Part shown: one piece after another, positions 14,285 to 49,302 of the stretch
Layout: each line of letters opens with the position of its first letter
How positions within the stretch are numbered: the stretch's first letter is position 1
Assembly (NCBI GenBank): GCA_025403435.1
Contig: CM046340.1
Span: 13,894,091 to 13,958,090, forward strand
DNA: 64,000 nucleotides
Source of the DNA: Artocarpus heterophyllus
Taxonomy: Eukaryota; Streptophyta; Magnoliopsida; Rosales; Moraceae
Direction: 5' to 3'
Made by a program: the position numbers and the translations under genes
Notes under the pieces: generated by a model
Told to the model about the DNA's origin: nothing
Databases searched by the model: none
What the model saw: the letters and a program-made list of their open reading frames with translations, nothing else

Positions 14285-14289
14285 ATGAC

Positions 14290-16243
14290 TGTAACGCCCC
14301 TATATGGGGGTTAACAGTTTTTAATGAGATAAAATAAAAATAAATAATAAAAGTAAAACCTTAAAAATAAAATTTACCCGGGACTTAAATGAAAACTCTC
14401 AACTCAAAAATAAAAATATAAACGACAAATAAACCACAGTTTAATGTAGCACCTTAAATTTAATAATATAAACTGTTGTCATCATCATTTTAACCCTCAA
14501 CACATTGTAATACAGTCACAGAAAGTAACAATTGATGCTTACATTATCATGAAGAACATTCTCAACAATTGAAGCAGTCCCAATGTAATATAGCTACATC
14601 ACTTCCTCAACTATATTTCTCGTAGCCACCTCACACTTAGTGAGTCCTGAAAAGATAAAAATATAAGGGTATGAGCAACACTATGCTCAGTAGAGAAAGC
14701 CATTACTCACCTCTATCATTACCACATTAAAATCTGCATGGTTAATAAGTTACATCATATTCCAGATTATGAGGTTTATTATGATCACATCTTATGGATA
14801 CCGTAGTTAATCATTACCAAGTGTCATAATTACACATTTATACAAATATTAACAATCATCATTATTCCTAGGTATCCATGTTAAATTGAGTATCACTCAA
14901 CTCATCGAAACCCAAATGGGCGCACTTGATCACCCTATAAACATTCCAAGGGTGTTCCGGTGAGGGGACATCAAGCCCCGAGTCCTCACCAAATCGATTC
15001 CTGTACAGTGTGTTCTGGGACTTTCAACCCAAGGAAGCGTCATCGCCTTCCCCCTATTTTACCTTTTAGGGTATTCATGCCCAAGGACGTAACCGTCGCC
15101 CTCTTCATGTCTCACAATTTCTCTATATTGAATCATTATTAATAGAGTTAGTTTTCCTAACCATGCTTCTCAATTTATAACATGTGTCAATTCATTATGT
15201 TCCTCGCCGTACAATACAAGACGAGTCCATGTCATAGTTTCATATGTGATACTCATATAATATCACTTCAACATAGATATATATATATTGCGGCAAAACA
15301 ATCAATTTTAATTCTATAAAAACCTCACAAAAGATGAGTAATAGAATCCCTACCTTTTAAGCTTATCAACAGTCTCTTAATCCTGGAATCAATTAACGTT
15401 AGCTCCATACTCCCTTGATCCTAAGGCGTGCATAAGGACAATTAAAACTAAAGCACAACATACAACTACATTCATAAAATTTATTTTAATTTAATCTTAG
15501 AATTTCAAGAAATAACCACTGCCCATAGAGGTATTATAAAGTTTAACAATATAAATTTTCTGTCTAGGGCATATACACTTAGACTTCATACATATGCTCC
15601 AAATAGCAACAAACATATACTTAGGTTTAAGAACGCAAATTTGAATAATCCTTTAGTATAAAAGAAAATTTATAAATGAAAGACTAAATTTGTTCATAAG
15701 ATTCTAACCTCGGATTATGGTTAGTTGGAAGCTTCAAAACAGGTTCCTTTAGTTCGGTATGACTGAAATTCTTGCTCAAATGGAGGTGATCGTGGCTGAT
15801 TTTTATGGCTGCCTTGAAGAAGTTCTCTAAGTATTTTGCTTCAGCAAAGAAATAAGAAGAAGAGTGTGGGAACCGTGGAAGAGAAAGGAAGAAAAGATGA
15901 AGTCTTTGAAGAGAAGTGATAGAAACAATTATAGAGGAGACATGTTGAAGCATGTCACGGAGGAAATAAAGAAAATGAGGGTCAAGAGTAGTTGGAAAAG
16001 ATATCCTTATGTCTCATCTAAAGACTTTAACACACATAATGCCAATATGACATTTTTGAGATTTATTAGAAGTTCTAAGGCTTTTTAGTAATCATACTAA
16101 ATAAATATAAGAGAATTTTAGAAAATTTAAAAATAGATAAAAATAAATATTATAAAATAAATTTAAATGAAGCAATTTTTTTTTATACATTAAAAATTAA
16201 TTTAATTACCTCAATACCCGTTAGAAGAATAACGGGTGTCACA
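14290..16243 (-). repeat. 3' LTR of the cargo retrotransposon
   Basis: This 1954 bp copy matches 20635-22587 throughout. On the minus strand it starts TGTGACACCCGTTATTC and ends GGGGCGTTACA. Differences seen by eye are one extra G in the run at about 14306-14311 and one substitution at about 14735 (aaaaTctgc against aaaaGctgc). It contains a GC-richer block at 14960-15110. Reading frames inside it have no recognisable motifs and occur in both LTRs only because the LTRs are copies. Confidence 0.95.
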
Positions 16244-16282
16244 GCTCTACCCCCCTTAAAGAAATTTCGTCCTCGAAATTTC
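16244..16282 (-). other. polypurine tract and remnant of pol 3' end
   Basis: On the minus strand the sequence next to the 3' LTR is TTTAAGGGGGGTAGAGC, directly followed by TGTGACACC, which is a normal PPT position. Just before it, codons read N-F-E-D-E-I-S-L-R-G. This short tail is typical of the end of Ty3/gypsy Tekay/Del polyproteins and is the only trace of pol in the element. Confidence 0.75.
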
Positions 16283-16917
16283 AATTCTAGCAATACTAGT
16301 AAAAATTATGATTCCACTATGATTCCAATTCTGAGTCTAAACCGTTAATGTTGTTTGTCCTCCAAATTTAAGTTATCGTATCTCCACTTATTTACTTGCA
16401 TAATAAATCTTACTCCTAAATCCCTCAATGAGAGTATTTCTGACAAGTTTCAACTTATAACACCGTATAATAGTCTAAGAATCTGATCAGGCCTACATAT
16501 TGACCATATCATGATTCCAGTCCTTCATTGTCCATGGACTGTGATTTACAATCACATTTAAGGAGATTGCCAGAGAAATTTTATATACTTCATCTTTAGG
16601 TTCCTTTTCCTTTTTGAGTAAGGAAAAGTCAAATATATTTGATTTCATACCTCAACTAATAAACTAAAACATAATCATAAAACATATATCACAAACACTT
16701 TTATTCAAAACCATACATTAAACTTATTCATAGAGATATTAAACGGAATCTCAGAGTTGCAAACATACCCGGCATATTTTTCATTAAACAGCTATCCTCA
16801 TGACACAAACATTCAATCCAAATAATATACTCATATTTCACATGGAATATCCCCATAACTGACTCTGGTACTTCCACATAATATTAACAGAATATTACAC
16901 ATTACAAACATAATACG

Positions 16918-17063
16918 GATACGTTTCGAGAGTACAAGGCACTCCGTATACCAGCTATCCATATCATGCATGCTTAGAGGATACAAAAACATCGATAAAC
17001 AAAAGATCGGACCTTAAGAAAGATGCGTTTCGAGAGCATCAAGTACTCCGTATCCAGCCATCC
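16918..17063. repeat. pair of about 42 bp direct repeats in the element's 3' region
   Basis: The words 'gatacgtttcgagag...actccgtataccagctatcc' (16918-16960) and 'gatgcgtttcgagag...actccgtatccagccatcc' (17022-17063) are diverged direct copies about 104 bp apart. They lie between the LOG-like stop codon and the PPT, so would be in the 3' untranslated part of the transcript. Confidence 0.6.
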
Positions 17064-17198
17064 CGGCATTAGGCTCAATGAATCTAAAAGATTTAACAAC
17101 GACGTACCACAAGAAACACATAATACAAGGTAAACGGTTATTCGTAACACACGAAATACGGACACACATGCCTACATGCCAAAGATAAAACAAAAAGA

Positions 17199-17849
17199 TT
17201 ACAGATGGAGATTCAAATCAATTGGCCGCTCCCGGCTTTCCCTTTCCCATTCAAGCTTGGATGTTGCAGTGTCGGATTCTGGATGTATGATTTGCATTTT
17301 ATCTATCAATTCCTCAGCTGTTGAAGCAGTGACAAAGATTTGTCTCTCCGATTCTGTCGTGATGTTTTCTTCCACAGCGTAATCTAGAAATTTCAAAAGA
17401 CCGTCATAAAAACCCTTTACGTTCAGCAGTCCCAAAGGTTTGGAATAAAAGCCCAACAATTGCCCACAAGCAACTATAAATATTTCCTCAAGAGTACCTA
17501 GACCACCAGGTAATGCTATAAAAGCATCAGAATTATAGATTATGTCTTTAAAATTTTTAGGGATACTCCTGACTCCTTCTCCCTTACCTATGGCTTCCTT
17601 ACAAAGGTTTCCTTCAACTGGAATATGAGGCCAAATTCTTACATCAGTAGCGTCGCTAGACCTAGCTGCTAGTGTCATATTTACCATCATTTTTATACTA
17701 CCACCCCCATAGATTATGTTAATCTTCTTGCGTGCTAGGACTTGCCCTAAGTGATTTGCAGCTTCTAAATAAGCTTTATCTTTTCCAAGGCTGGAACCAC
17801 AAAAGACACAGACATTCTTTATTTTCTTCGTGGACTGGGAGGTAGACAT
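17199..17849 (-). CDS. LOG-family (cytokinin riboside monophosphate phosphoribohydrolase-like) protein in a retrotransposon
   Basis: A 216-residue intact frame runs from ATG at 17849 (an upstream in-frame extension to 17888 has no ATG after the stop). LOG enzymes release active cytokinin bases from their ribotides. Family features seen: VCVFCGSS at residues 13-20, YGGGSI at 47-52, SDAFIALPGG at 107-116 merging into PGGLGTLEE (114-122, the family signature), KPLGLLNV at 137-144, and a C-terminal half that fits well. Length is close to normal plant LOGs. The middle (residues 53-105) is very diverged: the GVIPK-type segment is lost, and the segment where plant LOGs have a Met-His-Gln/Glu-Arg-Lys motif reads IPKNFKDII, so the catalytic Arg appears to be Asn99. 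Plant LOG genes have several introns and this frame has none, so it was captured from cDNA. It is co-oriented with the retrotransposon. Enzyme activity is doubtful; ligand binding or another role is possible. Confidence 0.85.
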   Translation of the reverse strand: MSTSQSTKKIKNVCVFCGSSLGKDKAYLEAANHLGQVLARKKINIIYGGGSIKMMVNMTLAARSSDATDVRIWPHIPVEGNLCKEAIGKGEGVRSIPKNFKDIIYNSDAFIALPGGLGTLEEIFIVACGQLLGFYSKPLGLLNVKGFYDGLLKFLDYAVEENITTESERQIFVTASTAEELIDKMQIIHPESDTATSKLEWERESRERPIDLNLHL

Positions 17850-17889
17850 ATTTGGTTTATAGAAGTGGTTGCTTAATGTCTGCTCCACT

Positions 17890-18612
17890 TAGACTTCGGG
17901 TTCTACATGAGTTTTTAAAGATGAGAAATATACAAAAAGGGCTAAAGAGATAGACGAGTAGGTAATGAAAAGGTAATCCAAAGATTTAAACAAAATCTTG
18001 TGCGGATAAGAAAGTAAGATAAGGTGATTGATAGTTTACAGAAAATCTGATTCACTTTTTGAAAAAGATTAGACTCTAATTGTATAACTTTTGACAATTG
18101 AGAACAATTCGACAGAAGACCCTCTTGACACAACTGTAGACTTTTTGACAAATATACACCAAGTCTAGAAATTTAATATAAACGACAAATACTGTAGAAC
18201 TTTTGAAATTTGAGACACAAATCTTGAAATATCTGGATAAGCTTTTCAAAATTCAAACATATTACTGTACCGTATGTAACGTGTCTGATAAGATAATATA
18301 TTTTATTATATATATATTTAAGAAAATCATAAATTAAATAAGATATTAACACTTACTGTATCAATCTAATAATCACAATTACTTCAAACACAAAAGCAAA
18401 TATTCTGAGTAAAAGAAAAACACAAACTGTTGAACATCAGCTAAAACTGCTTCAAATAAGCAAAGACTAAATAACCTTTATAGAGCGATGACTTATTCCC
18501 CATCCAGTTTTCTTATGGCTTGGCAAACAGGATCTAAAAATACCATATTCCTGAGGCGTTGTCTTTCTGTATAAAATTTAGGCCAGAGTTTAAAAATAGC
18601 TCCTTGAACATA
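17890..18612 (-). other. spacer between the two cargo ORFs
   Basis: About 0.7 kb of AT-rich sequence without a convincing frame; a 69-codon frame at 17942-18151 has no recognisable motif. How the downstream LOG-like ORF would be translated (splicing, separate promoter, reinitiation) is not visible. Confidence 0.4.
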
Positions 18613-19014
18613 TCAACTAGGGTGACCGTGGAGAGGAGGATGGATGCTATCCAAGTTCTCCTTTGAAAGTCCATTCCTACAAAACCTTATTTTATCCTCT
18701 CTATTCGTAGACATATAACCAGGTGAAGTACATTTACCGTTACAATTTTGTCTTCCACATTTGTTACAAGTGACCACGATGGCACGAGCTCTTCTTTTCA
18801 TTGCACTACGACTGGTACCCGTTCCTGGTAAACCGACATCTTGACTAAAGTCACTCGGACGGATTTTCCCCTCTATTAACATTCTCACATCACAAGGGAT
18901 ACCAAAACGCATAAGAATCCACAACCGAGTAATTCTAGCCTTGTATTTCTTTCTGAGAATCTTTTGGGAGAGTGATGGGAAATACTTTCTCAGGTGTTGG
19001 TACTTTGGGTCCAT
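18613..19014 (-). CDS. small basic cysteine-rich protein resembling plant RNA-virus nucleic-acid-binding proteins, in a retrotransposon
   Basis: An intact 133-residue frame starts with ATG at 19014. The N-terminal 35 residues are Lys/Arg-rich. Next comes a hydrophobic helix-like stretch (LWILMRFGIPCDVRMLI, 31-47), a Gly/Ser-rich linker, an arginine-rich patch SAMKRRARAI (70-79), then a Cys cluster CNKCGRQNCNGKC (83-95; C-x2-C-x4-C-x3-C), a PG at 98-99 and a final FCRNG (111-115). This order (hydrophobic segment with G-x-P-x-DV, linker, S-x-KRRAR patch, zinc-binding cysteines, C-x2-PG, short tail) resembles the cysteine-rich nucleic-acid-binding proteins of carlaviruses and relatives, several of which are reported RNA-silencing suppressors. 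The Cys spacing is tighter than I expect for them. It is not a CCHC gag knuckle. Same strand as the element and the LOG-like ORF. The viral link is pattern recognition only. Confidence 0.6.
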   Translation of the reverse strand: MDPKYQHLRKYFPSLSQKILRKKYKARITRLWILMRFGIPCDVRMLIEGKIRPSDFSQDVGLPGTGTSRSAMKRRARAIVVTCNKCGRQNCNGKCTSPGYMSTNREDKIRFCRNGLSKENLDSIHPPLHGHPS

Positions 19015-20610
19015 GATGAGATGAAAGAAGAGTAAATAGAAATGAAAAATTAAGATAGTAAATTGCAGAATCCTAGAATTCCTTCTTCTTTTAGAGGAAA
19101 AGAAGAATTTTTAATGAAAAAGAAGAGGATTTGCGATTTAGAGAAAAAATAACAAATTAAGAGAGAAAAAGTGAACTCGGAGAAATAAGGTCATACGCAC
19201 AGTAAACGTATATGTAAACAATAATTAAACCACTGTATATGACACGTATAGAGACCACGTGGGAGAGACAGTGTGAATCAAACTGATTTAAGATTTGAAC
19301 TAGGCCCAAATGTTCTAAGTTGAAAATGGTCAGGTTGTTTCGGGCCTTAACACATTTGGAACGAGTTAAATAACAAACATAAAATTGAAAACCAATTCGT
19401 ATGAATCTTAAACCCAATTCAAAGTCCACTATAGATAAAGTTAAGTATGAACAACAAATCTAATTTAACGACAACAAGGATCTTCCTGAATGATATTTAA
19501 AATCATTTCATAACACAATCTTCCAGCAACTCAAATAATTTTGTTTTAATCAAAACCTTATTGAACAATGCATACACCCATATGTTATTCCTAATACTCA
19601 ACATCTATCAATGGATTCATCATCATTGCTACCAAGGGTTTAGAATGTGACTAACCTTGAAATCAATACGATTTACGTCTTTCAACGTAGACCATATCAA
19701 TGAACAAAGACACTTGATGTTACTACTTAAGAACATCTACAATCCCCACAATTCTACTTATACAATATATAATTTCCTCATATAACAAAACCTTAGGTAA
19801 CCAAAAGATTCACATCTAAACATCTAAAACTTAAACATTTTATTGTAATTATCCAAAATTATTATAAGTGCCTTAAGTATTATGATTTACTTAAGGAAAC
19901 TCCTATTGATCATTTTTCTATTGCATCTATATATAAAGATTCACTGATACACTTAAATACAATGTACGTAACGAAATATTCCAATTTTGAGATTCATGCA
20001 TTCTAGACTTTACACAGTCTCAATAGACCAAAAGTCTAACATTTATCTCTCTCAAGATTCAATACCATGATTCCCAACTTATATCATATTCCTCAATTAA
20101 ATAGAACTTTCAAGAAAAGTTATTGACACTTATGTGCTCCATCGAATCCACACATAATCATTACTTAGGTTTGAATCAATTACGAAAAATTTGGCATATC
20201 TATGCCAAACTTTAAAATCAATAAATCAAGCCTTATATTTTTTTTTATTGTTTTTCACGAGACAAAAGGCTCTTAAATCCTCGTATCTACACGAATTTCT
20301 CATCGTTTATACGAATTAGATATGCTTATAGATCCTAATATTATACGAATCTCTCATAAGCATTCTACTTATAAACTCATTCCATATAATTATCATTCCC
20401 TCATAACTATTAATACTTTCCTTCTATAAAATTATTGTACTCATATAACCATTAGTATTTTCATTCTATGGCCTTTCCATGTTACATCCTTCTAAACTGT
20501 ATAAATCAATGTGAAGGTTCATTTTGATGATGACAATGAAAATTCAGCTTCAAAACCATCTCAAAAATATATTTTTTTAAAGTGGTGCTACACTCCCTAG
20601 GTTAACCGAA
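19015..20610 (-). other. leader region of the cargo retrotransposon
   Basis: This 1.6 kb lies between the PBS and the first cargo ORF. It is AT-rich, with only short frames lacking known motifs (for example 19157-19429). It probably holds packaging and dimerisation signals of the RNA, by analogy with other non-autonomous elements; none can be identified directly. Confidence 0.45.
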
Positions 20611-20627
20611 CCTAGGCTCTAATACCA
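20611..20627 (-). other. primer-binding site of the cargo retrotransposon
   Basis: On the minus strand, seven bases after the LTR end, the sequence is TGGTATTAGAGCCTAGG. Its first 12 bases match the common initiator-Met tRNA PBS (TGGTATCAGAGC) with one change. This fixes the element's orientation as minus. Confidence 0.85.
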
Positions 20628-20634
20628 AAAATTC

Positions 20635-22587
20635 TGTAACGCCCCTATATGGGGTTAACAGTTTTTAATGAGATAAAATAAAAATAAATAATAAAAGTAA
20701 AACCTTAAAAATAAAATTTACCCGGGACTTAAATGAAAACTCTCAACTCAAAAATAAAAATATAAACGACAAATAAACCACAGTTTAATGTAGCACCTTA
20801 AATTTAATAATATAAACTGTTGTCATCATCATTTTAACCCTCAACACATTGTAATACAGTCACAGAAAGTAACAATTGATGCTTACATTATCATGAAGAA
20901 CATTCTCAACAATTGAAGCAGTCCCAATGTAATATAGCTACATCACTTCCTCAACTATATTTCTCGTAGCCACCTCACACTTAGTGAGTCCTGAAAAGAT
21001 AAAAATATAAGGGTATGAGCAACACTATGCTCAGTAGAGAAAGCCATTACTCACCTCTATCATTACCACATTAAAAGCTGCATGGTTAATAAGTTACATC
21101 ATATTCCAGATTATGAGGTTTATTATGATCACATCTTATGGATACCGTAGTTAATCATTACCAAGTGTCATAATTACACATTTATACAAATATTAACAAT
21201 CATCATTATTCCTAGGTATCCATGTTAAATTGAGTATCACTCAACTCATCGAAACCCAAATGGGCGCACTTGATCACCCTATAAACATTCCAAGGGTGTT
21301 CCGGTGAGGGGACATCAAGCCCCGAGTCCTCACCAAATCGATTCCTGTACAGTGTGTTCTGGGACTTTCAACCCAAGGAAGCGTCATCGCCTTCCCCCTA
21401 TTTTACCTTTTAGGGTATTCATGCCCAAGGACGTAACCGTCGCCCTCTTCATGTCTCACAATTTCTCTATATTGAATCATTATTAATAGAGTTAGTTTTC
21501 CTAACCATGCTTCTCAATTTATAACATGTGTCAATTCATTATGTTCCTCGCCGTACAATACAAGACGAGTCCATGTCATAGTTTCATATGTGATACTCAT
21601 ATAATATCACTTCAACATAGATATATATATATTGCGGCAAAACAATCAATTTTAATTCTATAAAAACCTCACAAAAGATGAGTAATAGAATCCCTACCTT
21701 TTAAGCTTATCAACAGTCTCTTAATCCTGGAATCAATTAACGTTAGCTCCATACTCCCTTGATCCTAAGGCGTGCATAAGGACAATTAAAACTAAAGCAC
21801 AACATACAACTACATTCATAAAATTTATTTTAATTTAATCTTAGAATTTCAAGAAATAACCACTGCCCATAGAGGTATTATAAAGTTTAACAATATAAAT
21901 TTTCTGTCTAGGGCATATACACTTAGACTTCATACATATGCTCCAAATAGCAACAAACATATACTTAGGTTTAAGAACGCAAATTTGAATAATCCTTTAG
22001 TATAAAAGAAAATTTATAAATGAAAGACTAAATTTGTTCATAAGATTCTAACCTCGGATTATGGTTAGTTGGAAGCTTCAAAACAGGTTCCTTTAGTTCG
22101 GTATGACTGAAATTCTTGCTCAAATGGAGGTGATCGTGGCTGATTTTTATGGCTGCCTTGAAGAAGTTCTCTAAGTATTTTGCTTCAGCAAAGAAATAAG
22201 AAGAAGAGTGTGGGAACCGTGGAAGAGAAAGGAAGAAAAGATGAAGTCTTTGAAGAGAAGTGATAGAAACAATTATAGAGGAGACATGTTGAAGCATGTC
22301 ACGGAGGAAATAAAGAAAATGAGGGTCAAGAGTAGTTGGAAAAGATATCCTTATGTCTCATCTAAAGACTTTAACACACATAATGCCAATATGACATTTT
22401 TGAGATTTATTAGAAGTTCTAAGGCTTTTTAGTAATCATACTAAATAAATATAAGAGAATTTTAGAAAATTTAAAAATAGATAAAAATAAATATTATAAA
22501 ATAAATTTAAATGAAGCAATTTTTTTTTATACATTAAAAATTAATTTAATTACCTCAATACCCGTTAGAAGAATAACGGGTGTCACA
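20635..22587 (-). repeat. 5' LTR of the cargo retrotransposon
   Basis: This 1953 bp copy matches 14290-16243 with two differences noticed by eye. The minus strand starts TGTGACACC and ends GTTACA. As the 5' LTR it should hold the promoter; I could not pick a TATA box with confidence. Confidence 0.95.
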
Positions 22588-22929
22588 ATGACACTTGTCC
22601 AAAACCTGTTCCATCATAAGGGGGAGAAGTGGTCCTTTTTTTACCTTTGGAGTGTCTTTTTTTTCTTTTCTTCATGACCATACTAAAAAAAAAAGACAGT
22701 AGCATTTAGTCATTTTTTCACTTAATTAAAACTTTGGCTCTACCACAAGCCCAAAACCAAGTATGTCATCGGTAAGGTGGCCAAATATTTCACCTTTTAT
22801 GTGTAATTGTTGGGTCCCACATCATCCTTTAACAGTCTAATTTTATACTGATAGTATATTTCTTATACTATAAGTATTCTTTTCTATACAAGTTATGAGA
22901 TCCCACAACTTTCTATATTTATCCATATC

Positions 22930-37768: not shown

Positions 37769-38690
37769 ATGGCGTTGGTTAAATTGGAAGTAGAGAAATT
37801 CACAAGCACTAACGATTTCAATTTGTGGAGGTTGAAGTTGTAGTGCATCAAGGCTTAGACGCGGCATTGTCGAATGAGGCAATGGCAAAGGTAGAGGAGA
37901 AACTTCGAGAGGACTTGTTACAAAAGGCTCACAGTGCAATCTTGTTAAGTCTTGAAGATGAAGTTCTTAGGGAAGTAGCTGACGAAGACACCGCCATTGG
38001 AATATGGGGAAAATTGGAAGCTTTGTATATGAAGAAATCTTTGGCGAATTGGTGGTACTTGAAGAAGTGACTTTATGCCCTCCTAATGGATTATGGAAAG
38101 TCTCTGAAGAAACATTTGGACATGGACCTAAAGAGCATCGATGTAAAGATCAATGATGAGGACCAAGCGATCATCCTCTTTAGTTCTCTACGAAAAAGTT
38201 ATGAGCACTTTGTAGATATGATGTTGTATGGAAAGGAATCTTTGACTATGGCTGAAGTGAAAGCAGCCCCAAATTCTAAAGAATTACAGATGAATGGGGA
38301 GAGTAAGAAGGAAGAGGGCCTTGTTGAGAGTCTAGTAATTCGCGAAAGATCTGAGAAATGGGAGTTCAAGAATCAAGGACAGTCTAGATCAAGAGCCAAA
38401 GTGAGAAGAAAATGTTTTTTCTGTCTCAAGGAAGGGCATTTCAAGAAGGATTGTCTCAAGAGAAAGAATAGGGCAAACGACAACATAAAGAATTTTGGGG
38501 ATGTAGCCATTGCAAAAAATGGCTATGAAAGTGCCAAGATCTTGATTGTGTCTGATCAAGAATCCAGTAAAGAATCGATTCTTGACTCAAGATGTTCATT
38601 TCATATGAGTCCAAATAAGAGTTTGTTTGAAAAGCTCAAGTTGGCTGACTATGGAGTGTGCTTCTAGGGGACAACAAAGAATGCACAGTA
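37769..38690 (+). pseudogene. copia element 1 gag and start of protease, interrupted
   Basis: Translation starts at ATG 37769 (MALVKLEVEKF...NDFNLWRLK), followed by a frame change and a gag region with VVHQGLDAAL and a stop at 38068. The second frame from 38086 ends in a CCHC zinc knuckle, CFFCLKEGHFKKDC (about 38411-38452), and a protease-like start (ILDSRCSFHMS, where DSG is changed to DSR). The nested element interrupts it at 38690. Gag would package element RNA; this copy cannot. Confidence 0.8.
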
Positions 38691-38890
38691 TCATGAGATA
38701 TGGGAAGTGAAATTAATCTGACTTATTTTATTGATTAGAGTTATATGAATACATATACATCTCAGCATAGAAATAGAAAAAGGAAACCAAAAAATTAGGA
38801 AACTATCTCCTAGAATCTCACAATTTAGGATCTAAAAAACTAACTTTCCTAAAACAGTGTACAACTAATATTCAACTACTACACTCGACA
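38691..38890 (-). repeat. 3' LTR of nested copia
   Basis: 200 bp matching 43482-43702, which has an extra segment around 'ccacaacatagaaaactatcccccaa'. Confidence 0.85.
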
Positions 38891-38897
38891 CTCCCCC

Positions 38898-41800
38898 TCA
38901 AGCCGAGGAATAGATGTCTTCCATTCCCAACTTGGAGATAATATCATGAAAACTCGAACTGTTTAATCCCTTTGTCAAAACATCAACTAATTGGCTTCCA
39001 GCACAAGTCCTTCCTCCAATTTTTCCATGATGAAATGTTTATCCACCTCAATATGCTTTGTCCTATCATGTTGAATAAGGCTATGGGCAATATTGATGGC
39101 TGGTTTGTTGTCACAGTAGAGCTTCATAGAACCTTCCCACTTAATTTTCAAGTCATCTAGTATAATCTTTAACCATAACAACTCTCACAAGCCTTGAGCA
39201 ATTGCTCTAAATTCTAATTATGCTGATGATTTAGCCACAACATTTTGTTTCTTGCTCCTCCAAGTCACCAAATTGCCTCCAAGAAAAGTACAGTAACCTG
39301 TGGTTGATCTTCGGTCTACCATTGATCCTGCATAATCCGCATCCGTATAAGCTTCTAGGACTAGATGATCGTTCCTCTTAAACAAAATTCCTTTCCCTGG
39401 ACTACCTTTTAAATAATGTAGTACCCTAAAAGCAGCTTGTAGATGTTGCTCTCTTGGATCATGCATAAATTGGCTAATTACGCTCACTGAGTAAGCTATG
39501 TTGGGTCAAGTATGGGCAAGATATATGAGTCTGCCAACTAACCCCTAGTACATCTTTCTATCAACGGCTGGTTCTTCCTTTGCTTCTCCAAGCTTCTGGT
39601 TCGAGTCTATTGGAGTAGAAACCGGTTTGCACCCAATCTTCCCTGTCTCATTTAGAAGGTCAATCCCATACTTCTGTTGGGACATGAAAATTCCTTGTGT
39701 GGAATATGCCACCTCAATACCAAGGAAGTACTTTAATCTCCCAAGCTCCTTTATCTCAAACTCCTTGATCAGCCATTGCTTCAATTCCCCTTTTACCTTT
39801 TCATCATTTCCAATCATAATAATATCATCAACATGCACTAGAAGTGCGGTTACTCCCCCTACAGCCGATTGCTTGATGAAGAGAGTATGATCACCTTGAA
39901 TTTGTTTATATCCCGACCCTTTCATGACTTTAGCAAATCTACCAAACCATGCCCTAGGAGATTGTTTCAGTCCATATAGAGCCTTTTTCAGCCTACAAAC
40001 TCTGTTACTTGTGTTTTCTTCAAAGCCTGTGGAATATTCACATAGATTTCTTCATCTAGGTCTTCGTGAAGGAATGCCTTCTTCACATCACACTGAAGAA
40101 GTCGCCAGTCAAAGTGAGCTGCTAATGATAATAAAATACTCACAGTATTCATTTTTGCCATTGGAGCAAATGTCCCCTAGTAATCAACCCCATAAGTTTG
40201 AGTGTACCCTTTAGCAACTAACTGTGCTTTATATCTCCCAAGTGATCCATCAGCTTTGTATTTCAGTGTGAAGATCCATTTGCAATCAACTATGTTTTTC
40301 TCCTTTGGTTTATCAACAATCTCCCATGTCCGATTCTTCTCGAATGCATCCATTTCCTCCCTCATGGCATTCCTCCATTCTCTTTTAAACAATGCCACAG
40401 AAACAATATTGGGAATGGAGATGGTATTCAAACTCACAATGAACTTTTTGTGCACTGGTGATAAGTGTGTTAGTGACACATATTGAGACAAAGGATATAA
40501 AGGTCTCTTAGTACATTCTCTAGTACCTTTTCTAACAGCAATGGGAAGATGTGAGTCATCTGTAGGTGTTTCAACTGATTGTGTATGCAAAGGAGGATCA
40601 AATCTTACTATGGACTCATTACCAGAGTTCATCTCAGATTCCTAGGCCTGTTTCAAGTCTGGAACAGTTGCTTTTTTGGAATACACTTGTGAACATCTTG
40701 GAAAATCATGAGTAACACAAACTGACTTTGGAGACTTTGGAGAGTGCATGTTTTCTTGAAGAGTTTCTGGATTTGGAAGAATTTATGGACGAGTGACTTC
40801 TGTGTTTTCTGGGACAAATTGCTCAGAGGACACAGGACTGGAAGTCGAGGACGTGTTTGGGACATAGGACTGGAAGTCGAGGACGTGTTTGGGACAGACA
40901 TAGGAAGCTCAAGAGACTGAAAAGTACTATCTTCTATCATCGAAATCTCCCCCTGAAGATAGGACTTTGATTTTAGCAAAAATAACATCAGCTGAGCTGT
41001 AGAATTTGCGTGAGGAAGGGTCATAGCACTTATATCCCTTTTGTGTAGGTGAATAACCTATAAAGACACATTTAATGGCTCGGGGATCTAACTTTCCTTG
41101 GTGTTGACGATGAACATGTACAAAGGCCGTGCATCCAAATACCCTAGGTGTAAGTCCATTTGAGGTTCTAAAGTTGGGATAAAAGGTATAAAGAATTTCC
41201 ATGAGTCTTATTATCTAACACACGTAAGGGTAGTCCATTTATCATATATGTGGCAGTTAAAACTGCCTCCCCCTAATAGGATTTAGAAACATTCCCTTGA
41301 AACAGTAGAGCCCGAGTTACATCAAATAGGTGCCCATTTTTCCTTTTAGCTACCCCATTTTGTTGAGGTGTATCAACACATGATGAGTCATGAATAATTC
41401 ATTGGTTTTGAAAATAGGTTGACAAAGTCTGATTGTAGTAGTCTCTAGCATTGTCCGACCTAAAGCTTTTAATCTTAACTCCAAATTGGTTTTGAATCAT
41501 AGAATGAAAATTAGTTATAATAGTGCTAATATCAGATTTTTTTTTTTTTTGAGTAAGAAAATCCATGTAACCCGAGTACAGTTGTCAATCAACGAAACAA
41601 ACAAACGAGCCCCAGTAACATTAGGAACAGTAGAAGGGCCCAGGTATCACTGTGAATCAAATGAAAAAGATAAGAACTTCTTTTATTGATAATAGGAAAG
41701 GATACACGAGTATGTTTTGCCAATTCACAAATTTCGCAATGAAAATCTGAAATATCTAATCCTTTGAACAAATGTGGGAACATAACTTTTAAGACTCTAA

Positions 41801-43351
41801 AAGATGGATGACCAAGGCGTAAATGGTAAAGCCAAATGTCATCTTTATTTGACATACTAAGAAATGACTGGACAAATTATTCATGATTTTCTGAAAAGAT
41901 TCAAGGTGGTAAAGACCGTTCCTTTCCTTAGCAAGTTCAATCCTCCTCCCTGAGCCCTGGTCCTGAAAAACACAATAAGAAGAGGAAAAAGTTGCGTAAC
42001 ATTTGAGGTCATGTGTAAGTTTTTGAATAGACACAAGATTGGCTGATAGTTTTGGTACATGAAGGACAATTTTAAGAATAAGTGAGGGTGTTATATATGC
42101 ATCTCCTATTCTTGCAACAGTAGCTAAAGAACCATTGGCCACTACAATCTTCCTATTACTAGGACACGGGGTATAGGTATGGAAAAAGTGTGAGGAGTGA
42201 GTCATATGGTCTATAACACCTAAGTCAATTATCCATGTGTTGGCATAATACTTATTTGAGGCATTCATGCAAAAAGAGAGTACAGGTTTACCTGAGAGAG
42301 CCAAGGAACTAGCTCCAGAGGGTTTCTCAAGAGATCCTAAAACACTCCTCAATTTTTCAATCTACTCACTATTAAGAACTCCTTTATCCAAGGCTTCTTC
42401 TGCTTTAGGCTGCTCGGTCAGGCGTGCTTGAGTCCTCTGCTGCACTCCACGGTTTCCCTACTCTCGGCTTGGTGGTTTTCCATTCAACTTCCAACATTTT
42501 TCCTTTGTATGCCTCAGTTTCTTACGGTATGTGCACCACAAATTGTCCTTATTCTCCTTCCACTAGCTGTCTTTTCCAGAATTCTTTGGCAGGCCACCTT
42601 TCCCTTTCTCCTGGTGGTCCAGTTTGGTGGCTAAGATTGAGCTTTCCACGGTCTGGGGTTCAAGCATGATATTCCTTTGGCTTTCCTCTGCTCTAATCAT
42701 GGAGATTGTCTCTTCTAGTGAGGGTATTTCCTCCTTGCCAAGAATCTAGATTCAGACCTAATCAAATTTAGGATTTAACCCAGCCAAAAAATCATACACA
42801 CGGTCTCTTTCAATGAAAGTCTTCAAAATTGCAACATCTTTAGGGCACTTCATCTCGAACACTCGATAATGATCGAGTTCCTGCCACAGGTTTTGCAGCA
42901 AAGTTTGCGTATTTAGTGACAGTCTTGTCTACCTGTTCAATCGCCCCAACTTTGATCTTGATCTCGTACACTTGAGTAGCATCACAAGCCTTTGAATAGG
43001 TGCGACGAATAAAATCCCAAATCTCCTTTGCAATAGCCAAAAACATGCATGTATCACTGATCATTGGGTCCATCAAGTCCCATAGCCATAACATAATCAT
43101 GGAGTCCTCCTCATTCCACACCCCAAATGTTGGATCTTCCTTGTTGGTCCCCTTCCAAGAAGATGACTGAGTCTTCCTTTGCCTTTCAGGTATGTGCGGA
43201 CAAATTGAGACCATTTGAGATAGTTCTTTCCATTGAGCCTATAGGAAGCCTGAATGTTTTGCAGGTCTCCGGTCTTTTGGAGCAAATTTTCTTCTTCGGA
43301 TGGGTTAGGGTTGCTGGAGATGGCAGTTTCAGATGAAGACATAATGGGCAT
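38898..43351 (-). pseudogene. polyprotein of nested copia, broken
   Basis: Gag begins at ATG 43351 (MPIMSSSETAIS) with the GKNYLKWSQFVRTYLKGKG motif, then shifts frame. A zinc-knuckle-like segment is at about 42500. The protease motif WIIDSGATDHMT reads WIIDLGVIDHMT (about 42220), so the catalytic DSG is lost. Integrase starts LWHLRLGHPS (about 41830), and its C-terminal part includes VFGCTAFVHVHRQHQGKLDP. RT has CKWIFTLKYKADGSLGRYKA (about 40270) and HVDDIIMIG in place of YVDD (about 39830). RNase H includes YTDADYAGS and LYCDNKPAINIA. The protein ends KLGMEDIYSSA with TGA at 38898. Multiple stops and frameshifts rule out activity. Confidence 0.85.
40828..40898. repeat. 32 bp tandem duplication in the nested copia
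   Basis: The unit 'aggactggaagtcgaggacgtgtttgggacat' occurs twice in a row within the spacer between integrase and RT. It is a small local duplication after or during decay. Confidence 0.8.
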
Positions 43352-43481
43352 GATGGAAGGGAAAAAGCGGATATAGAGAAGAGGAAAAAGGAGAAGCAAT
43401 CGAGAAAAGAAGATAAGTAGCAACGAAGGCTGCACGAAGACAGATTTCCAGGAAAAAAAGCCTGATGGCTCTGATACCATA

Positions 43482-43702
43482 TCACAAGATATGGGAAGTG
43501 AAATTGATCTGACTTATTTTATTGCTTAGAATTACATGAATATATACACATCTTAGCATAGAAACAAAAAAAGGAAACCACAACATAGAAAACTATCCCC
43601 CAAAAAATAGGAAACTATCTCCTAGAATCTCACAATTTAGGATCTAAAAAACTAACTTTCCTAAAATAGCGTACAACTAATATTTAGCTACTATACTCGA
43701 CA
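43482..43702 (-). repeat. 5' LTR of nested copia
   Basis: 221 bp; on the minus strand TGTCGAGTATAG to ATCTTGTGA, two bases before the PBS. Confidence 0.85.
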
Positions 43703-46677
43703 CAGTAATGGGCATAGGAACTATGAGGATCAAGATGTTTGATGGGGCAGAAATAATTCTTCAAGATCTAAAGTATGTTCCTGAATTAAAAAGGAATCTA
43801 ATCTCTCTTGGTATGCTTGATAGAAAAGGCTATGGTTATAGAGGTGAAAATGGGAATTTGAGGGTCTATAAGGGTTTTTTGATAGTAATGAAAGGAACTC
43901 GGGCAAATGGTCTTTACTCTCAAATTGGAAAGACAGTAATTGGGGGTTAGTAGATGCCATGAGTGAAGATATTGACAAGACAAAACTGTGGCATCAAAGG
44001 TTGGGCCATGTTAGTCAAAGAGGTCTAGAAGAACTATATGAACAGGGACAATTGTGTGGAGACAAGATTGAAACACTTGGTTTCAGTGATCACTATGTTT
44101 TAGGGAAAGCAAGAAGGCTTAAGTTTACCATAGCAAAACAGAGAACAGAAGGTGTTCTTGACTATGTTCATTTAGATCTCTGGGGACCCTCAAGTATTGT
44201 TTCACATGGGGCATCAAAGTACTTCTTGTCTATAGTTGATGACTACTCAAGGAAACTATGGGTTTACTTCTTGAAAAATAAGAATGATGCACTTCAGAAA
44301 TTCAAGGAATGGAGAATCCTGGTTGAAACTCAAACAGGGAAGAAAGTCAAGAAACTCAAAACAGACAATGGTCTAGAGTATTGTGCTAACTTGTTTACAC
44401 AGTATTGTAAAGACACAGGAACGGCAAGACACTAGATTGTGAGGAAAACACCACAACAGCATGGCCTAGCAGAGAGATTTAACAGGACCATACTTGAACG
44501 AGTAAGGCGTATGCTGAGCAATGTAGGTCTGCCAAAGATTTTTTGGGCAGAAGCAGTTAGTACAGCTGCTTATCTTATCCATAGATGCCCATCTACTACT
44601 TTGGGTTTCAAAACACCCCAAGAGATATGGAATGGTAAACCAGCAAACTACAATAGACTAAGGACATTTGGATGCATTGCTAATACTCATATCAAGCAAA
44701 ATAAGCTAGATCCGAGGGCTCTCAAGTGCATATTTGTGGGCTATCCTGATTGTGTAAAGGGCTATCAACTATGGTGCTTAGAGCTTGGATAGAAAAAATG
44801 CATCATTAGTAGAGATGTGGTTTTCAATGAAAATCAATGGCAGATTTGGTTCAAAGGAATCCATCAGTTTCACAGGATGATCATAGCAAAGATACATAGG
44901 AGTTTGAGGTGGAACCTAGAGGGGTTCAAAGTCAAATTAACATAGCCACACCACCAATTTTAGAAGAAAAGGAACAACAAGATGTTGATATCACTCAAGA
45001 AACTGCTTCAGACAGTTATAGCTTGGCAAAGGACAGGACTAGGACACATAGAGCACCTCAGAGGTATGGACAGGCTGATTTGATCTTTTATGCATTTAGG
45101 TCAAGATATTGAGGAAGACAGATTCTGGATCATATGCTGAGGCCATGGAGAGTCAAGACAAAGCTAATTGGCAGTAAGCAATGGCCGAGGAGATGGACTC
45201 TTTATACAAAAATGGAACCTGACAGCTCGTGGATAGGCCAAAGGATCAAAAGGTAGTTGGTTGCAAGTGGATCTTTAAGAAGTAGGAATTCTAGGAATAG
45301 AAAGTGCTCGTTTTAAAGCAAGGTTTGTAGCTCGTGGTTTTAAACAATAGGAAGGAATAGATTTCACAGAAATATTCTCTCCTGTAGGAAAACACAGTTC
45401 CATTAGAACTAGCCTTTGTGAATCATTTTGACATGGAATTAGAATAAATGGACGTCAAAACAACTTTTTTGCATGGTGAACTGGATGAAACAATTTATAT
45501 GAAACAGCTAGATGGTTTCATTGAGAAAGATGTTGAAGATAAAGTGTGTTTGCTTAGGAAGTCCTTATATGGTTTGAAAGAATCCCCTAGTATGTGGTAT
45601 AGGCATTTTGATGAGTTCATGATGAGAGTTGGCTTCCTGAGAAGTAAATATGACTACTGTGTGTATTTGAAGAAAGAGGCAGTTATCAAACCTCTTTACT
45701 TGCCACTATACGTGCATGGCATGTTGATAGCAAGTGGGGATACAGGGGAGATTTCAAAGTTAAAGAAACTGCTGAAGATTGAGTTTGACATGAAGGATCT
45801 TGGTTCGGCGATCATGATATTGGGAATGGAGATCATTAGAAAGAGAAACAAGGGAGAGCTCTACTTGTCTCAAGGAATATACTTAAGGAAAGTGATAAAG
45901 AGATTCAATATGTCTCAAGCTAAGTCAGTACTCACACCCTTAGCTCAACATTTTAAGGTCTTAGTGCAACAGAAACCAAAAACAGATGAAGAATTCAAGT
46001 GCATGGAGAAGATACCTTACTCAAGTGCCGTGGGAAGCACCATGTATGCAATGGTATGCAGTAGGCCTGATCCTACCTATGCAATCATTGTAATAATCAG
46101 GTTTATGGCTAAACCTGGAAAGGGTCACTGGGAGGCTGTTAAGTGGGTTATGAGGTATCTGTGTGGTTCAGTTGGTTATGGGCTAAGGTATGTTTAAAGG
46201 CAGTTAGTGGATAGAGTCCTAAAGGGTTATCTAGACTCAGATTTTGCTGGAAACGTTAACACAAGAAACTCTCTGACTGGGTATGTTAGCTAGAAGTCTA
46301 ACTTGCAGCATGTTGTAGCATTCTCAACTACAGAGGCAGAATATATTGCTGCCACAGAAGCTGTTAAAGAAGCCATTTGGCTCAAAGGTCTTTTGTCTAA
46401 GTTGCTTGCTCAACAAGAGATTAGAGAAGTAACCGTTTTCTGTGACAACCAGAGTGCTATCTATTTAACCAGGAACCAAGTCCATCATGAGAGAACGAAA
46501 CATGTGGATGTGCAGTACCACTTTGTCAAAGATGTAATTGTATAGAAAGTTGTGTCTGTGCAAAAGGTGTCAACTGAAGATAGCCCTGCAGATATGCTGA
46601 CAAAAGCACTGCCATCAGTGAAGTTCAACCATTGTTTGAAGCTGTTGGGAGTGGAAGAAGTTTCTAATAGGAATTGA
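43703..46677 (+). pseudogene. copia element 1 protease-end, integrase, RT and RNase H, broken
   Basis: The frame resumes after the nested insertion with VMGIGTMRIKMFDGAEI and YVPELKRNLISLG. Integrase: LWHQRLGHVSQRGLEEL (about 43990), then HLDLWGPSS, YFLSIVDDYSRKLWVYFL, and QQHGLAERFNRTILERVR. RT: MDVKTTFLHGELDETIYMKQ (about 45448) and KSLYGLKESPSMWYRHFD. The YVDD catalytic motif reads YVHG (about 45709), so it is dead. RNase [16 protein letters not shown] and [11 protein letters not shown]. It ends at TGA 46677. Stops occur at about 44433, 44790, 45110, 46195 and 46291, the last at an expected tryptophan codon. Confidence 0.85.
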
Positions 46678-46728
46678 CAATAAATTTGTATAATTGTAAT
46701 ATATTGAATATAGAACCAAGGTGGAAAT

Positions 46729-47094
46729 TGTTAGAATAAGTGGTTCAATATTCAGGGGCAATTTAGTAAAGCATAGTAGATTGGTTAATTGGTTAGCCGG
46801 GTGTTAAAAGCTAGTTGGCTGAGTTGGTAGATTCTAATTTGATCTTGGCAGGCTAGTTAGTTAGAGGGTTTAAAAGCAGAGGCTCTAACGGATAACTAGA
46901 GAGAGAGTAATCAGATTATATTCTTTAGTGAAGAAAGTGTACAGAGAAAGCCTTGTAGAGAGAATGGTTGTATTGCTGGTTCTTGAGAAAGGCAATAATA
47001 GCTCTTGAGGTTTTTCTGTGAAATTCCTTTTGTGTTCTAGAGTGCTGTGTGGTTGTGATTGATCAGAGAGTTTGAAGATTCCAGTTTTTCTACA
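46729..47094 (+). repeat. 3' LTR of copia element 1
   Basis: 366 bp, TGTTAGAATAAGTGG to TTTTCTACA, followed by GACAC. Confidence 0.85.
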
Positions 47095-47099
47095 GACAC

Positions 47100-48287
47100 C
47101 TTTATAGTTTCCAAAAATAGAGGGATAAATTTAGAAATAATTAAAACTAGAAATTATAGTTATGTTATTAACCCTATAATATATGCTACTTCCCTCATTA
47201 AACATGATACGTAATCACTCTCAGAAGTGCAGTAGTGCACAATGAGTTGACAACTTGACCTCGTGCAAAGTCAAATGAGGCGTATTGTAAAAGATAGTTA
47301 TTTAATGGAACTACACTATTGATGATTTCTTTCTTTTCTCCTACTATAGAATAATTCATTAAAATGACATATCCTAGCTTTCTTTCGGTAATAACTGCTT
47401 TCATGGTGTAGGCCTAAGGAGAAAGTTGTGTATCCCCTACGAACTGATAGTGATTATTCATATCCTTTCTTGTCTCCTATCACATTTTGAATTTCATAAC
47501 AGATGGTTTCCTCAATTTTAAATGTTGTTATTTTCTTGTTTTATCGGTGTCCTGAACTCAATAGTTAATAGTTAACCACCGTTCCATGGTGCGACCCAAG
47601 GCATGTCTTGGAAGGAGATAGTCAAGCGAAGTAATATAAAAATGTGATATTTTCAAGCATAAAATGGGTCTCAAACAGTGAAATTTTGCGACACAAAACT
47701 TAGCCTAAAATTGAAGCATGTCCTGGAGAACTATGTGATGAGGAACAAGAATAAAAGTAGAAAGCAGCATTTAGTATTATTTCCTAATATTTTGTTAGTC
47801 TATTAACTTTCCCTAAAACTGATCTAGTAACTTTCACTTTACTGATAGTGGGTAGTTTTCATTATTTGTTTGTTTACTTTCCTCTTTGTGTTGGCTTCCT
47901 TTCTCGTCATTTATTTCAAGATTGTCACTGTAATTCAGACTACAGACATAACATTACACATTAAATATTCGAATTTCCCCTTAATTGTTCATCTTCTTCT
48001 CTCTCCAAATTCTAAACTCTCTCTCTTCGCCTCTAATTCTTCCTCTATCTTTTTTTTTTTCCGATCTTTTATTTCCCTGTCCTACATCACAATGTCATAG
48101 CTAGTCAAACATCTTAAGTTCGCATATAGTGCACAATGATACTCATCCAGAGTAGATATCAACTTCATTTACTGATAATATAAACCAACGACAGATTACT
48201 CAGTGAAGCATTTCCACAAACATATACCGCGCACGAAAGTTGAAACCAAAAAAGACACATCAAGGAGAAAAACAATCAGGCAATTAC
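47100..48287. other. RPL15 intron remnant, no exon seen
   Basis: No RPL15 coding sequence could be read on the minus strand although the middle exons belong in this interval or in 36135-37373. A T-rich run at 48048-48062 and short frames without motifs are present. Confidence 0.4.
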
Positions 48288-48647
48288 CTTCGGCGATTCC
48301 TCGCAATTTGGGAATCCGACGGGAGAGGCATCTGCCCACCTTCAAAACCTTTTCTGACGCCGGGCCCAGACCTGGACTTCTGACCCCTCATCCCGAACCC
48401 ACAGCTGTTCCCTTGACCGGCCGAGATGCCCCTCCCCTTTCTCTTCGCCTTCTTCCTCGACCCCGGTTGTGGGCCCAGATTGTTCAGCCTGAACCAGACT
48501 TTCTCCGGCTTGCTGGGCCTCAGCTGCTTTGCTCACCACGACCAACAGTGGCTGTCTTCTCTCTCTACCTAAGTTCTTGAAGCTGAGTCTAGGAGAGAGA
48601 ATACTACCAGTACCAGACGGGTTTGTTTTCCAGTTAGTGACATTGCC
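48288..48647 (-). pseudogene. chloroplast ribosomal protein uL15 (RPL15), second exon, two frameshifts
   Basis: The minus strand has an acceptor (TTTTGCAG|GGC at 48647) and a donor (GAAG|GTAATT at 48288). The first frame gives GNVTNWKTN, LSPRLSFKNLG and VVVSKAAEA, the end of the transit peptide and start of the mature protein. A second frame gives [19 protein letters not shown], then [20 protein letters not shown] and [18 protein letters not shown], the highly conserved uL15 core. A third frame gives [10 protein letters not shown]. The breaks lie near 48504 and near 48319, where two bases of an expected Tyr codon seem missing. Nothing in this exon can be read through in one frame, so no full protein can be made unless the indels are assembly errors. 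Confidence 0.8.
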
Positions 48648-48662
48648 CTGCAAAACAGACAG

Positions 48663-49016: not shown

Positions 49017-49302
49017 TTTGGTATCATAGCCAACTTAAAAAATGCCTCTGCCTTGCCGTTGAACATCCTTTTTTTTTTACAGTTCACGTTCAAAATTTTT
49101 TGTGAATTCGGGTTTTCTGGTTTGAAGTTTTTAATCAAAACTAAAGTTGGAAATCATTGGGTAATTAGATTTCTAACAATTTTATAATTTAAAACGTTGA
49201 AATTGATGCCCGAAACGTGAAAATTCGAACGGGCCCAAAACCGGGTCGTAATATGGATCAAACGGGTCAACAAGACCCAATTTCGGGTGAAGGAGACGAC
49301 CA

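What the first reader, a model, noticed from the sequence alone, without database searches (positions are those of the whole stretch)
14290..22587. Recently inserted LTR retrotransposon that has replaced gag-pol with two non-retroviral genes
Structure is complete: LTRs differing by about two positions, ATGAC duplication, PBS and PPT. Yet the interior has no retroviral enzyme and instead two intact ORFs in the element's sense. Very young LTRs together with open frames mean the cargo has been carried intact up to the last transposition. A transposon family that carries a virus-like RNA-binding protein and a plant-hormone-enzyme relative would be a new kind of cargo element, and I know of no description of one.
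Basis: partly seen in the sequence, partly recalled or inferred. Interest (0 to 1): 0.93.

Follow-up and report, generated by a model that had tools for sequence, protein, structure and literature searches.

The report
Retrotransposon carrying only a two-gene module
In a plant genome, a recently active jumping element from a family of some 2,700 copies has no gene of its own for copying or inserting itself and instead carries two other genes, one resembling a plant-virus RNA-binding protein and one a plant-hormone enzyme; the pair recurs in unrelated elements and would likely help them escape the plant's silencing defences.

Summary
The element at 14290-22587 is real: LTRs of 1954/1953 bp differing by one indel and one substitution, target duplication ATGAC, iMet-like PBS, PPT, and no reverse transcriptase or integrase found. 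It belongs to a large family ('type A'): 2,771 places match its LTR-end/PBS junction (reversed control 0; older relatives included), and 4 of 4 assessable sister copies (10 tried) have different 5-bp target duplications and 99.6-100% identical LTR pieces. The genes are a protein resembling carlavirus nucleic-acid-binding proteins (NABP) and a LONELY GUY (LOG) relative. The window's NABP ends 40 residues short of most sister copies. The same NABP-LOG pair sits in a different, Athila-like shell with gag-protease but no polymerase (type B) and in a third context (type C). NABP and LOG are also linked in predicted proteins of Citrus, Orobanche and Acer. NABP shows clear purifying selection, LOG weaker. 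LOG has lost usual active-site residues; 92 of 97 full-length relatives also lacking them end in LxLxL, an EAR-repressor-like tail. Best reading: a non-autonomous element mobilised in trans, keeping a mobile, likely counter-silencing module. LOG-bearing Ty3/gypsy elements were already reported; I found no report of the pair. Function is inferred.

The parts
14285..14289 (.). target-site duplication ATGAC, left copy
14290..16243 (-). 3' LTR (element sense), 1954 bp
   Evidence: one indel and one substitution against the other LTR
16249..16259 (-). polypurine tract, within a 3' end resembling intact-looking chromoviruses of the same genome
   Evidence: 77% over 66 bp to L051/L052
16913..16960 (-). 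predicted RNA hairpin 2 (GGATAG...ACGGAGT...ACTCTCGAAACGTATCC) downstream of LOG
   Evidence: also in type C; 2,700 matches genome-wide, reversed control 0; no Rfam match
17017..17063 (-). predicted RNA hairpin 1, tandem relative of hairpin 2
17199..17849 (-). LOG-like ORF, 216 aa; changed active-site segment; C-terminal ...IDLNLHL (EAR-like)
   Evidence: Pfam PF03641 E 9.8e-22; TIGR00730 above cut-off; Foldseek of the family's LOG model (P0003), top 2a33 E 1.8e-16
18613..19014 (-). NABP-like ORF, 133 aa in this copy (173 aa in most sister copies); basic KRRAR stretch followed by four cysteines
   Evidence: PF05515 E 0.0062, below cut-off; 109 of 120 listed relatives carry PF01623
19015..20614 (-). 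about 1.6-kb leader without a long sense ORF, shared with older family members
20615..20627 (-). primer-binding site TGGTATTAGAGCC (iMet-like; tRNA assignment recalled)
20635..22587 (-). 5' LTR (element sense), 1953 bp
22588..22592 (.). target-site duplication ATGAC, right copy

Best explanation
The element is one copy of an abundant LTR retrotransposon family, recently active, that encodes no gag, protease, reverse transcriptase or integrase, is therefore likely copied in trans by another element's proteins, and carries a two-gene module (an NABP-like protein and a LOG-like protein) that likely protects its RNA or DNA from host silencing. Shown: anatomy, copy number, recent transposition, no polymerase found, the same gene pair in a second, unrelated LTR shell and a third context in this genome, linkage of the two domains in predicted proteins of other plants, sub-neutral dN/dS, change of the LOG active-site segment and a recurrent LxLxL tail. 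Inferred: (1) the mobilising partner is a chromovirus (PBS type, PPT zone and LTR start resemble chromoviruses of this genome); (2) NABP binds nucleic acid and acts as a silencing suppressor, as carlavirus CRPs do; (3) the LOG-like protein is no longer mainly a cytokinin enzyme but an adapter whose EAR-like tail recruits TOPLESS-type corepressors; (4) the two act with a cis bias, which would explain selection on them in an element whose enzymes come in trans; (5) the module passes between elements by template switching.
For: Copy number: 2,771 LTR-end/PBS junction matches and 2,700 hairpin matches, reversed controls 0; on contig C1, 53 of 66 junctions have the hairpin 3-4.5 kb downstream. Recency: 4 of 4 assessable copies have different TSDs and LTR pieces with 0/1585, 0/1582, 2/1587 and 4/1648 mismatches (the last also 2 gaps) (6 of the 10 copies tried could not be assessed). 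Coding kept: in 13 copies chosen by leader sequence, NABP is full length in 13 and LOG open in 10. Selection: shared NABP variants 8 of 19 nonsynonymous against 13.9 expected, P=0.003 (type A, 24 copies), and 5 of 15 against 10.8, P=0.0018 (type B, 7 copies); LOG 11 of 22 against 16.4, P=0.0098 (type B); NABP between type A and an older relative dN 0.026-0.029, dS 0.10-0.13. Module: type B L017 has gag, protease, NABP, LOG and no RT/INT frame between its LTRs, LTRs without blastn similarity to type A and a TGGCGCCGTTGTCGGG PBS; type C L053; NABP and LOG trees share the topology ((A,C),B), the three-type clade with support 1.0 in both; four listed proteins (Orobanche gracilis, Citrus) carry both Pfam domains, and an Orobanche protein runs protease into NABP. 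Function hints: RRA stretch and four conserved cysteines; carlavirus CRPs described as silencing suppressors (PMC12172455 passages); LxLxL in the last 15 residues of 92 of 97 full-length LOG relatives lacking HQRKAEM/HERKAEM, 0 of 6 cellular-type.
Against: No autonomous partner with type A LTRs was found; two junction matches without the hairpin were read and are older type A leaders. Shared-variant selection on type A LOG is weak (4 of 9 against 6.4, P=0.085; leader-chosen P=0.10), and LOG between type A and L054 has dN/dS near 0.5. The window NABP is truncated and that form has at least three copies, so full-length NABP is not needed in cis by every copy. Many of the 150 scored type B NABP matches contain stop codons. 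The NABP match to viral Pfam models is below cut-off for this genome's own proteins, and all 17 organism-named rows among the 120 listed are plants, none viral. The EAR reading is motif-only; the cellular control is six Solanaceae proteins, and the list was drawn by similarity to a tailed query. Not every LOG linked to retroelement sequence fits: Xanthoceras P0004/P0005 keep HERKAEM and lack the tail, as do 3 of 3 full-length HERKAEM proteins, and type B ends in WDLSL, a partial motif. No expression, small-RNA or binding data.
Confidence: 0.5

Rival explanations
1. The module helps replication rather than counter-defence: NABP would act as a nucleocapsid-like RNA chaperone or packaging factor that brings the element's RNA into another element's particles, with the LOG-like protein as partner.
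For: NABP is a small basic protein with four conserved cysteines; type B keeps gag-protease upstream of NABP, as does an Orobanche protein (P0168); type A, which has no gag, still keeps NABP.
Against: Type B gag may still have its own zinc knuckle (weak Pfam hits), so NABP is not a simple replacement; the role would not need a LOG fold or an LxLxL tail; viral relatives are described as silencing suppressors.
Confidence: 0.22
2. Passive cargo: the genes were captured once and hitchhike on a very successful LTR shell; open frames only reflect recent copying.
For: The sampled copies are so young that most would be open anyway; LOG is broken in 3 of 13 leader-chosen copies and its selection signal in type A is weak; the truncated NABP form still amplified.
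Against: Sub-neutral dN/dS on shared variants and between subfamilies; the same gene order in an unrelated shell and in other plants; at the cut-off used, blastn between A and B finds only ORF segments.
Confidence: 0.15
3. The LOG-like protein is still a cytokinin-activating enzyme that raises meristem or germline cell division and so the element's transmission.
For: LOG fold and PGGxGTxxE motif kept; some relatives in Xanthoceras keep HERKAEM.
Against: The HQRK segment is altered in types A, B and C; the NCBIfam cytokinin equivalog cut-off is not reached, although tomato LOG3 does not reach it either.
Confidence: 0.08
4. It is an endogenous RNA-virus remnant that happened to land inside an LTR element.
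For: NABP resembles carlavirus proteins.
Against: NABP occurs with LOG in this genome in more than one shell and in other plants; no other viral gene was seen; a viral-contig scan found no relative.
Confidence: 0.02

Closest known systems
Plant Ty3/gypsy elements with additional ORFs, including LOG/YgdH-bearing elements of Citrus and Populus (PMC9289625, passages and one section read; Steinbauerova et al. 2011 cited there, not read; review PMC7264820, first part of three read)
   Same: Ty3/gypsy-type shells with a LOG-family ORF
   Different: Those consensus sequences were found with reverse transcriptase as marker; here pol is absent, NABP precedes LOG, and type A consists of the module alone
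LARD (large retrotransposon derivative; recalled)
   Same: Non-autonomous LTR element without gag-pol, with PBS, PPT and TSD
   Different: LARDs are described as non-coding (recalled); this one keeps two genes with dN/dS below 1
TR-GAG elements (recalled)
   Same: Type B encodes gag-protease but no RT/INT
   Different: Type B adds NABP and LOG
Bdelloid rotifer LTR elements sharing ORF3 types across diverse retroelements (PMC5408684, passages read)
   Same: Accessory ORFs shared between unrelated retroelements
   Different: Animal elements; other proteins; not this two-gene cassette
Phalaenopsis Gypsy elements with an AlkB RNA demethylase (PMC9289625)
   Same: Retrotransposon-borne gene acting on RNA, of a kind also found in flexiviruses
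   Different: Additional to the element's own polyprotein; different gene; activity shown in vitro there
Carlavirus NABP/CRP (Pfam PF05515, PF01623)
   Same: Basic stretch followed by a cysteine cluster
   Different: Chromosomal, paired with LOG; closest named relatives found are plant-genome proteins, and scores of this genome's own proteins are below the Pfam cut-offs

Membership tests
LTR retrotransposon | near-identical LTRs, TSD, PBS, PPT | tested here: met
   four sister copies
LTR retrotransposon | own reverse transcriptase and integrase | tested here: not met
   no such frame or domain, hence non-autonomous
LARD | large LTR element with no coding capacity (recalled) | tested here: not met
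   two ORFs with dN/dS below 1
Tekay-type chromovirus (shell) | iMet PBS, matching PPT/3' end and LTR start | tested here: inconclusive
   77% over 66 bp to a 1554-aa-ORF chromovirus 3' end; no LTR-wide homology; lineage name recalled
Tekay-type chromovirus (shell) | gag-pol with chromodomain | tested here: not met
Athila/Tat-like shell (type B) | gag-protease and TGGCGCCGTTGTC-type PBS | tested here: met
   lineage assignment of PBS, LTR start and gag recalled
Viral NABP (PF05515/PF01623) | score above the curated cut-off | tested here: not met
   17 of 23 bits (window), 21 of 23 (type B); but 109 of 120 listed relatives carry precomputed PF01623
Viral NABP | nucleic-acid binding / silencing suppression | not testable with these tools
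   needs bench assay
LOG phosphoribohydrolase | fold and PGGxGTxxE motif | tested here: met
LOG phosphoribohydrolase | HQRK active-site segment (role recalled) | tested here: not met
   altered in types A, B and C
EAR-motif repressor | LxLxL or DLNxxP motif | tested here: met
   LNLHL at the C-terminus; 92 of 97 full-length relatives of its kind; motif definition from the start of the PMC6479872 abstract
EAR-motif repressor | TOPLESS binding | not tested
   -

The most novel reading that the evidence does not exclude
A portable counter-silencing cassette, half of it kin to an RNA-virus silencing suppressor and half a dead hormone enzyme turned TOPLESS-hijacking adapter, moves between unrelated retrotransposon shells across flowering plants, and has produced a family of thousands of elements that code for nothing else between their LTRs: a transposon that codes only for defeating its host's defences and borrows everything else.
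Probability: 0.3. Interest if true: 0.92.

Novelty: new variant of a known kind. Interest (0 to 1): 0.74.

Why it matters
Non-autonomous elements are usually thought to win by having no genes. Here an abundant young element has lost every replication gene yet keeps two accessory genes, at least one clearly under selection, which suggests those genes pay the element directly. If the module suppresses silencing, it gives plants a retrotransposon counterpart of viral silencing suppressors and would help explain how such a family reached thousands of copies. It also makes testable whether RNA viruses and retrotransposons share the same counter-defence genes.

Tried and rejected
Single-copy oddity: rejected. 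Autonomous partner sharing type A LTRs: 3' ends of two chromovirus families with long open frames (1578 and 1554 aa; L049-L052) share only 33 and 66 bp around the PPT; of junction matches without a hairpin, 7 were wanted and 2 read, both older type A leaders at 74% and 93% identity. Viral contigs: no relative. Rfam: none. NABP fold: model too poor (pTM 0.31), not searched. Host LOG genes: a tomato LOG query returned 150 scored places (capped list) that look like retroelement LOGs by frame and identity, so host copies were not isolated. Fast LOG evolution in type A by positive selection: set aside in favour of segment exchange, since the LOG block differs from L054 at synonymous sites (dS 0.36-0.41) far more than NABP (0.10-0.13). 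Host species: matK fragments of plastid origin show a plant, but no protein search was left to name it. Literature searches; what I saw of the listings (several were cut, e.g. 15 of 23 and 12 of 95) did not show the NABP-LOG pair; only open-licence papers are held.
Full report
WHAT IS THERE. The window lies in a 985-Mb genome (C14:13894091-13958090) that holds plastid-derived matK fragments, so a plant. Positions 14290-22587 hold a complete LTR element read on the minus strand: LTRs of 1954 and 1953 bp with one indel and one substitution, ATGAC on both sides, PBS TGGTATTAGAGCC and a polypurine tract. The only frames over 100 aa in the interior are an NABP-like ORF and a LOG-like ORF, both in the element's sense. 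Of 30 interior stop-to-stop pieces of 45 aa or more, the 6 scanned with Pfam gave no reverse transcriptase, integrase or gag.

IT IS A LARGE FAMILY WITH RECENT MEMBERS. A 30-base pattern over LTR end and PBS (26 fixed bases) matches 2,771 places, its reversed control none. A second pattern, over a hairpin downstream of LOG, matches 2,700, control none; it also fits the type C copy read here. On contig C1, 53 of 66 junctions have the hairpin 3-4.5 kb downstream, and 53 of 61 hairpins have the junction upstream. The junction count includes older relatives: the two read among those without hairpin are 74% and 93% identical to the window's leader. At 8.3 kb per copy 2,771 would be about 23 Mb, 2.3% of the assembly, if all were full length (my estimate, an upper figure for these matches). 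I read 13 of the 40 copies listed by leader sequence and, for 10 of them, a flanking piece. Both ends could be read in 4, and all 4 have different 5-bp duplications (TAATC, CAGGC, GTTCC, GTCGT), with LTR pieces differing at 0/1585, 0/1582, 4/1648 (plus 2 gaps) and 2/1587 sites. In the other 6 the 5' end of a longer LTR lay outside the piece.

THE GENES. In the 13 leader-chosen copies NABP is full length (173 aa) in all 13 and LOG is open in 10. Among the eight copies listed first by NABP similarity (window included), LOG is open in five. The window's NABP stops after 133 aa, and two further copies share this (L001, L007). All 150 scored places for each gene are free of stops, but those are the best-scoring ends of capped lists (6,182 and 5,477 candidates).

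SELECTION. The 24 type A copies are the window, ten chosen by NABP or LOG similarity (L001, L003-L010, L012; L002 is the window and L011 equals L004, both dropped) and the 13 leader-chosen. The null re-places each observed base change at random on the same base (5,000 draws; it ignores methylation context). Variants shared by two or more copies are nonsynonymous in 8 of 19 cases in NABP (13.9 expected, P=0.003) and 4 of 9 in LOG (6.4, P=0.085); in the leader-chosen 13 alone, 6 of 15 (11.0, P=0.006) and 3 of 7 (5.0, P=0.10). For seven type B copies: 5 of 15 (10.8, P=0.0018) and 11 of 22 (16.4, P=0.0098). Singletons are less skewed: NABP A 13 of 21 (16.0, P=0.10), LOG A 22 of 37 (28.5, P=0.010), NABP B 19 of 29 (21.7, P=0.16), LOG B 38 of 59 (43.5, P=0.064). 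Type B copies were chosen by NABP similarity, so NABP openness there is no evidence, and many of the 150 type B matches contain stops. Between subfamilies NABP has dN 0.026-0.029 against dS 0.10-0.13 (type A and older relative L054) and 0.16-0.17 against 0.8-1.2 (A and C). LOG A-C is 0.23-0.25 against 0.7-0.9, but LOG A-L054 is 0.20-0.22 against 0.36-0.41, a ratio near 0.5 (166 codons; L054's LOG frame is broken after that). Between A and B, dS is near saturation, but second codon positions are best conserved and third positions least. So the case is good for NABP and moderate for LOG.

A MODULE IN SEVERAL SHELLS. A second family in the same genome (type B; 150 of 150 scored matches 89-98% identical to homologue P0002) has the order gag, protease, NABP, LOG. 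In L017, read with both flanking pieces, the ORF list between 5' LTR end and 3' LTR start shows gag and gag-protease in two overlapping frames, NABP and LOG and no RT or INT frame; Pfam on three of those frames gives gag and protease only. Its LTRs begin TGATGAGACTG, are 97% alike and have no blastn similarity to type A, and its PBS is TGGCGCCGTTGTCGGG. A third arrangement (type C, L053) holds NABP and LOG between 75-81% identical direct repeats. Distance from NABP ATG to LOG ATG is 1.17-1.28 kb in all three. Trees of NABP and of LOG agree on ((A,C),B) within a clade of support 1.0; the inner node has 0.86 in NABP and 0.94 in LOG. In other plants, the NABP profile search listed 120 of 124 proteins: 109 carry Pfam PF01623; 17 have organism names, all plants (Hibiscus, Xanthoceras, Orobanche, Acer, Citrus); four hold NABP and LOG Pfam domains together, and two more LOG-domain proteins match the NABP profile. 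These are gene models, which may join neighbouring frames. One Orobanche protein runs from protease into NABP (P0168), and Xanthoceras LOG proteins contain a gag-like segment also seen, by eye, in type B gag. So the pair is old and belongs to retroelements, not to this one insertion.

LOG-LIKE PROTEIN. A model of the family's LOG (P0003) folds as LOG (Foldseek top 2a33, E 1.8e-16), but the HQRKAEM segment of cellular LOGs reads IPKNFKD in type A, MPERIRD in type B and an altered form in type C; that this segment is catalytic is recalled. Of the 120 listed LOG relatives 106 are 205-240 aa long: six with HQRKAEM (all Solanaceae) have no LxLxL in the last 15 residues, three with HERKAEM have none, and 92 of the other 97 have it. 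LxLxL and DLNxxP are the EAR repressor motifs (PMC6479872, abstract start in listing), and several pathogen effectors use EAR motifs or TOPLESS (PMC7446885, PMC8126959, PMC5539180; titles and abstract starts). Caveats: the list was drawn by similarity to a query with such a tail; many entries come from few genera or have no name; Xanthoceras LOGs next to gag-like sequence keep HERKAEM and lack the tail.

NABP-LIKE PROTEIN. A basic RRA stretch and four cysteines are invariant or nearly so over 49 sequences; one leader-chosen copy (L022) has lost one cysteine. Carlavirus CRPs are described as silencing suppressors (PMC12172455, passages). The genome's own NABPs miss the Pfam cut-offs, so viral kinship rests on relatives that pass, and the direction of transfer is open.

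OTHER FINDINGS. Against older relative L054 the four LOG windows of 150 bp differ at 13-36% of sites and the window just downstream at 25%, while the other windows differ at 3-13%; this points to segment exchange between elements. Two tandem hairpins lie downstream of LOG in types A and C, unknown to Rfam.

HOW IT LIKELY WORKS. Lacking gag and pol, the RNA must be packaged, copied and integrated by another element (inferred; chromovirus suspected from the shell). Selection on genes in such an element implies that a copy gains from its own proteins. The simplest account is that they act near the RNA that made them, shielding it from silencing. That is inference; packaging help is the main rival.

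NOVELTY. LOG-bearing Ty3/gypsy elements, gene-less derivatives and accessory ORFs shared between retroelements are each known. I found no report of the NABP-LOG pair, of its sharing between unrelated shells, or of a family made of it alone (searches listed under Tried and rejected; open-licence papers and partly cut listings only).

Noticed in passing
window 38000-54500: Several Ty1/copia-like gag-pol fragments on both strands, in pieces, flank the element (frames; lineage by eye).
   Followed up: no
window 15684-15953 and 22028-22297 (-): An 89-aa open frame lies inside each LTR in the element's sense; no Pfam match for the one scanned.
   Followed up: partly
window 16913-17063 and L053:1657-1763 region: Tandem hairpins sharing ACGGAGT and CTCTCGAAAC downstream of LOG, with a G-C to A-U change in the outer stem between the two; possible RNA signal, no Rfam family.
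   Followed up: partly
L054:1-5001: Older type A relative whose LOG block is far more diverged than most of the rest, suggesting exchange of LOG segments between elements.
   Followed up: yes
L053:569-4786: Type C module lies between direct repeats of up to about 490 bp and 75-81% identity unrelated to the type A or B LTRs; nature of this shell unknown.
   Followed up: partly
G000, e.g. C6:18696786 and C1:20240421: Chromoviruses with long open frames (1578 and 1554 aa) are present, candidates for supplying proteins in trans.
   Followed up: partly
L025, L028, L029, L030, L034 (and a smaller change in L026): A type A subtype has roughly 380-390 bp of extra sequence within the LTR.
   Followed up: no
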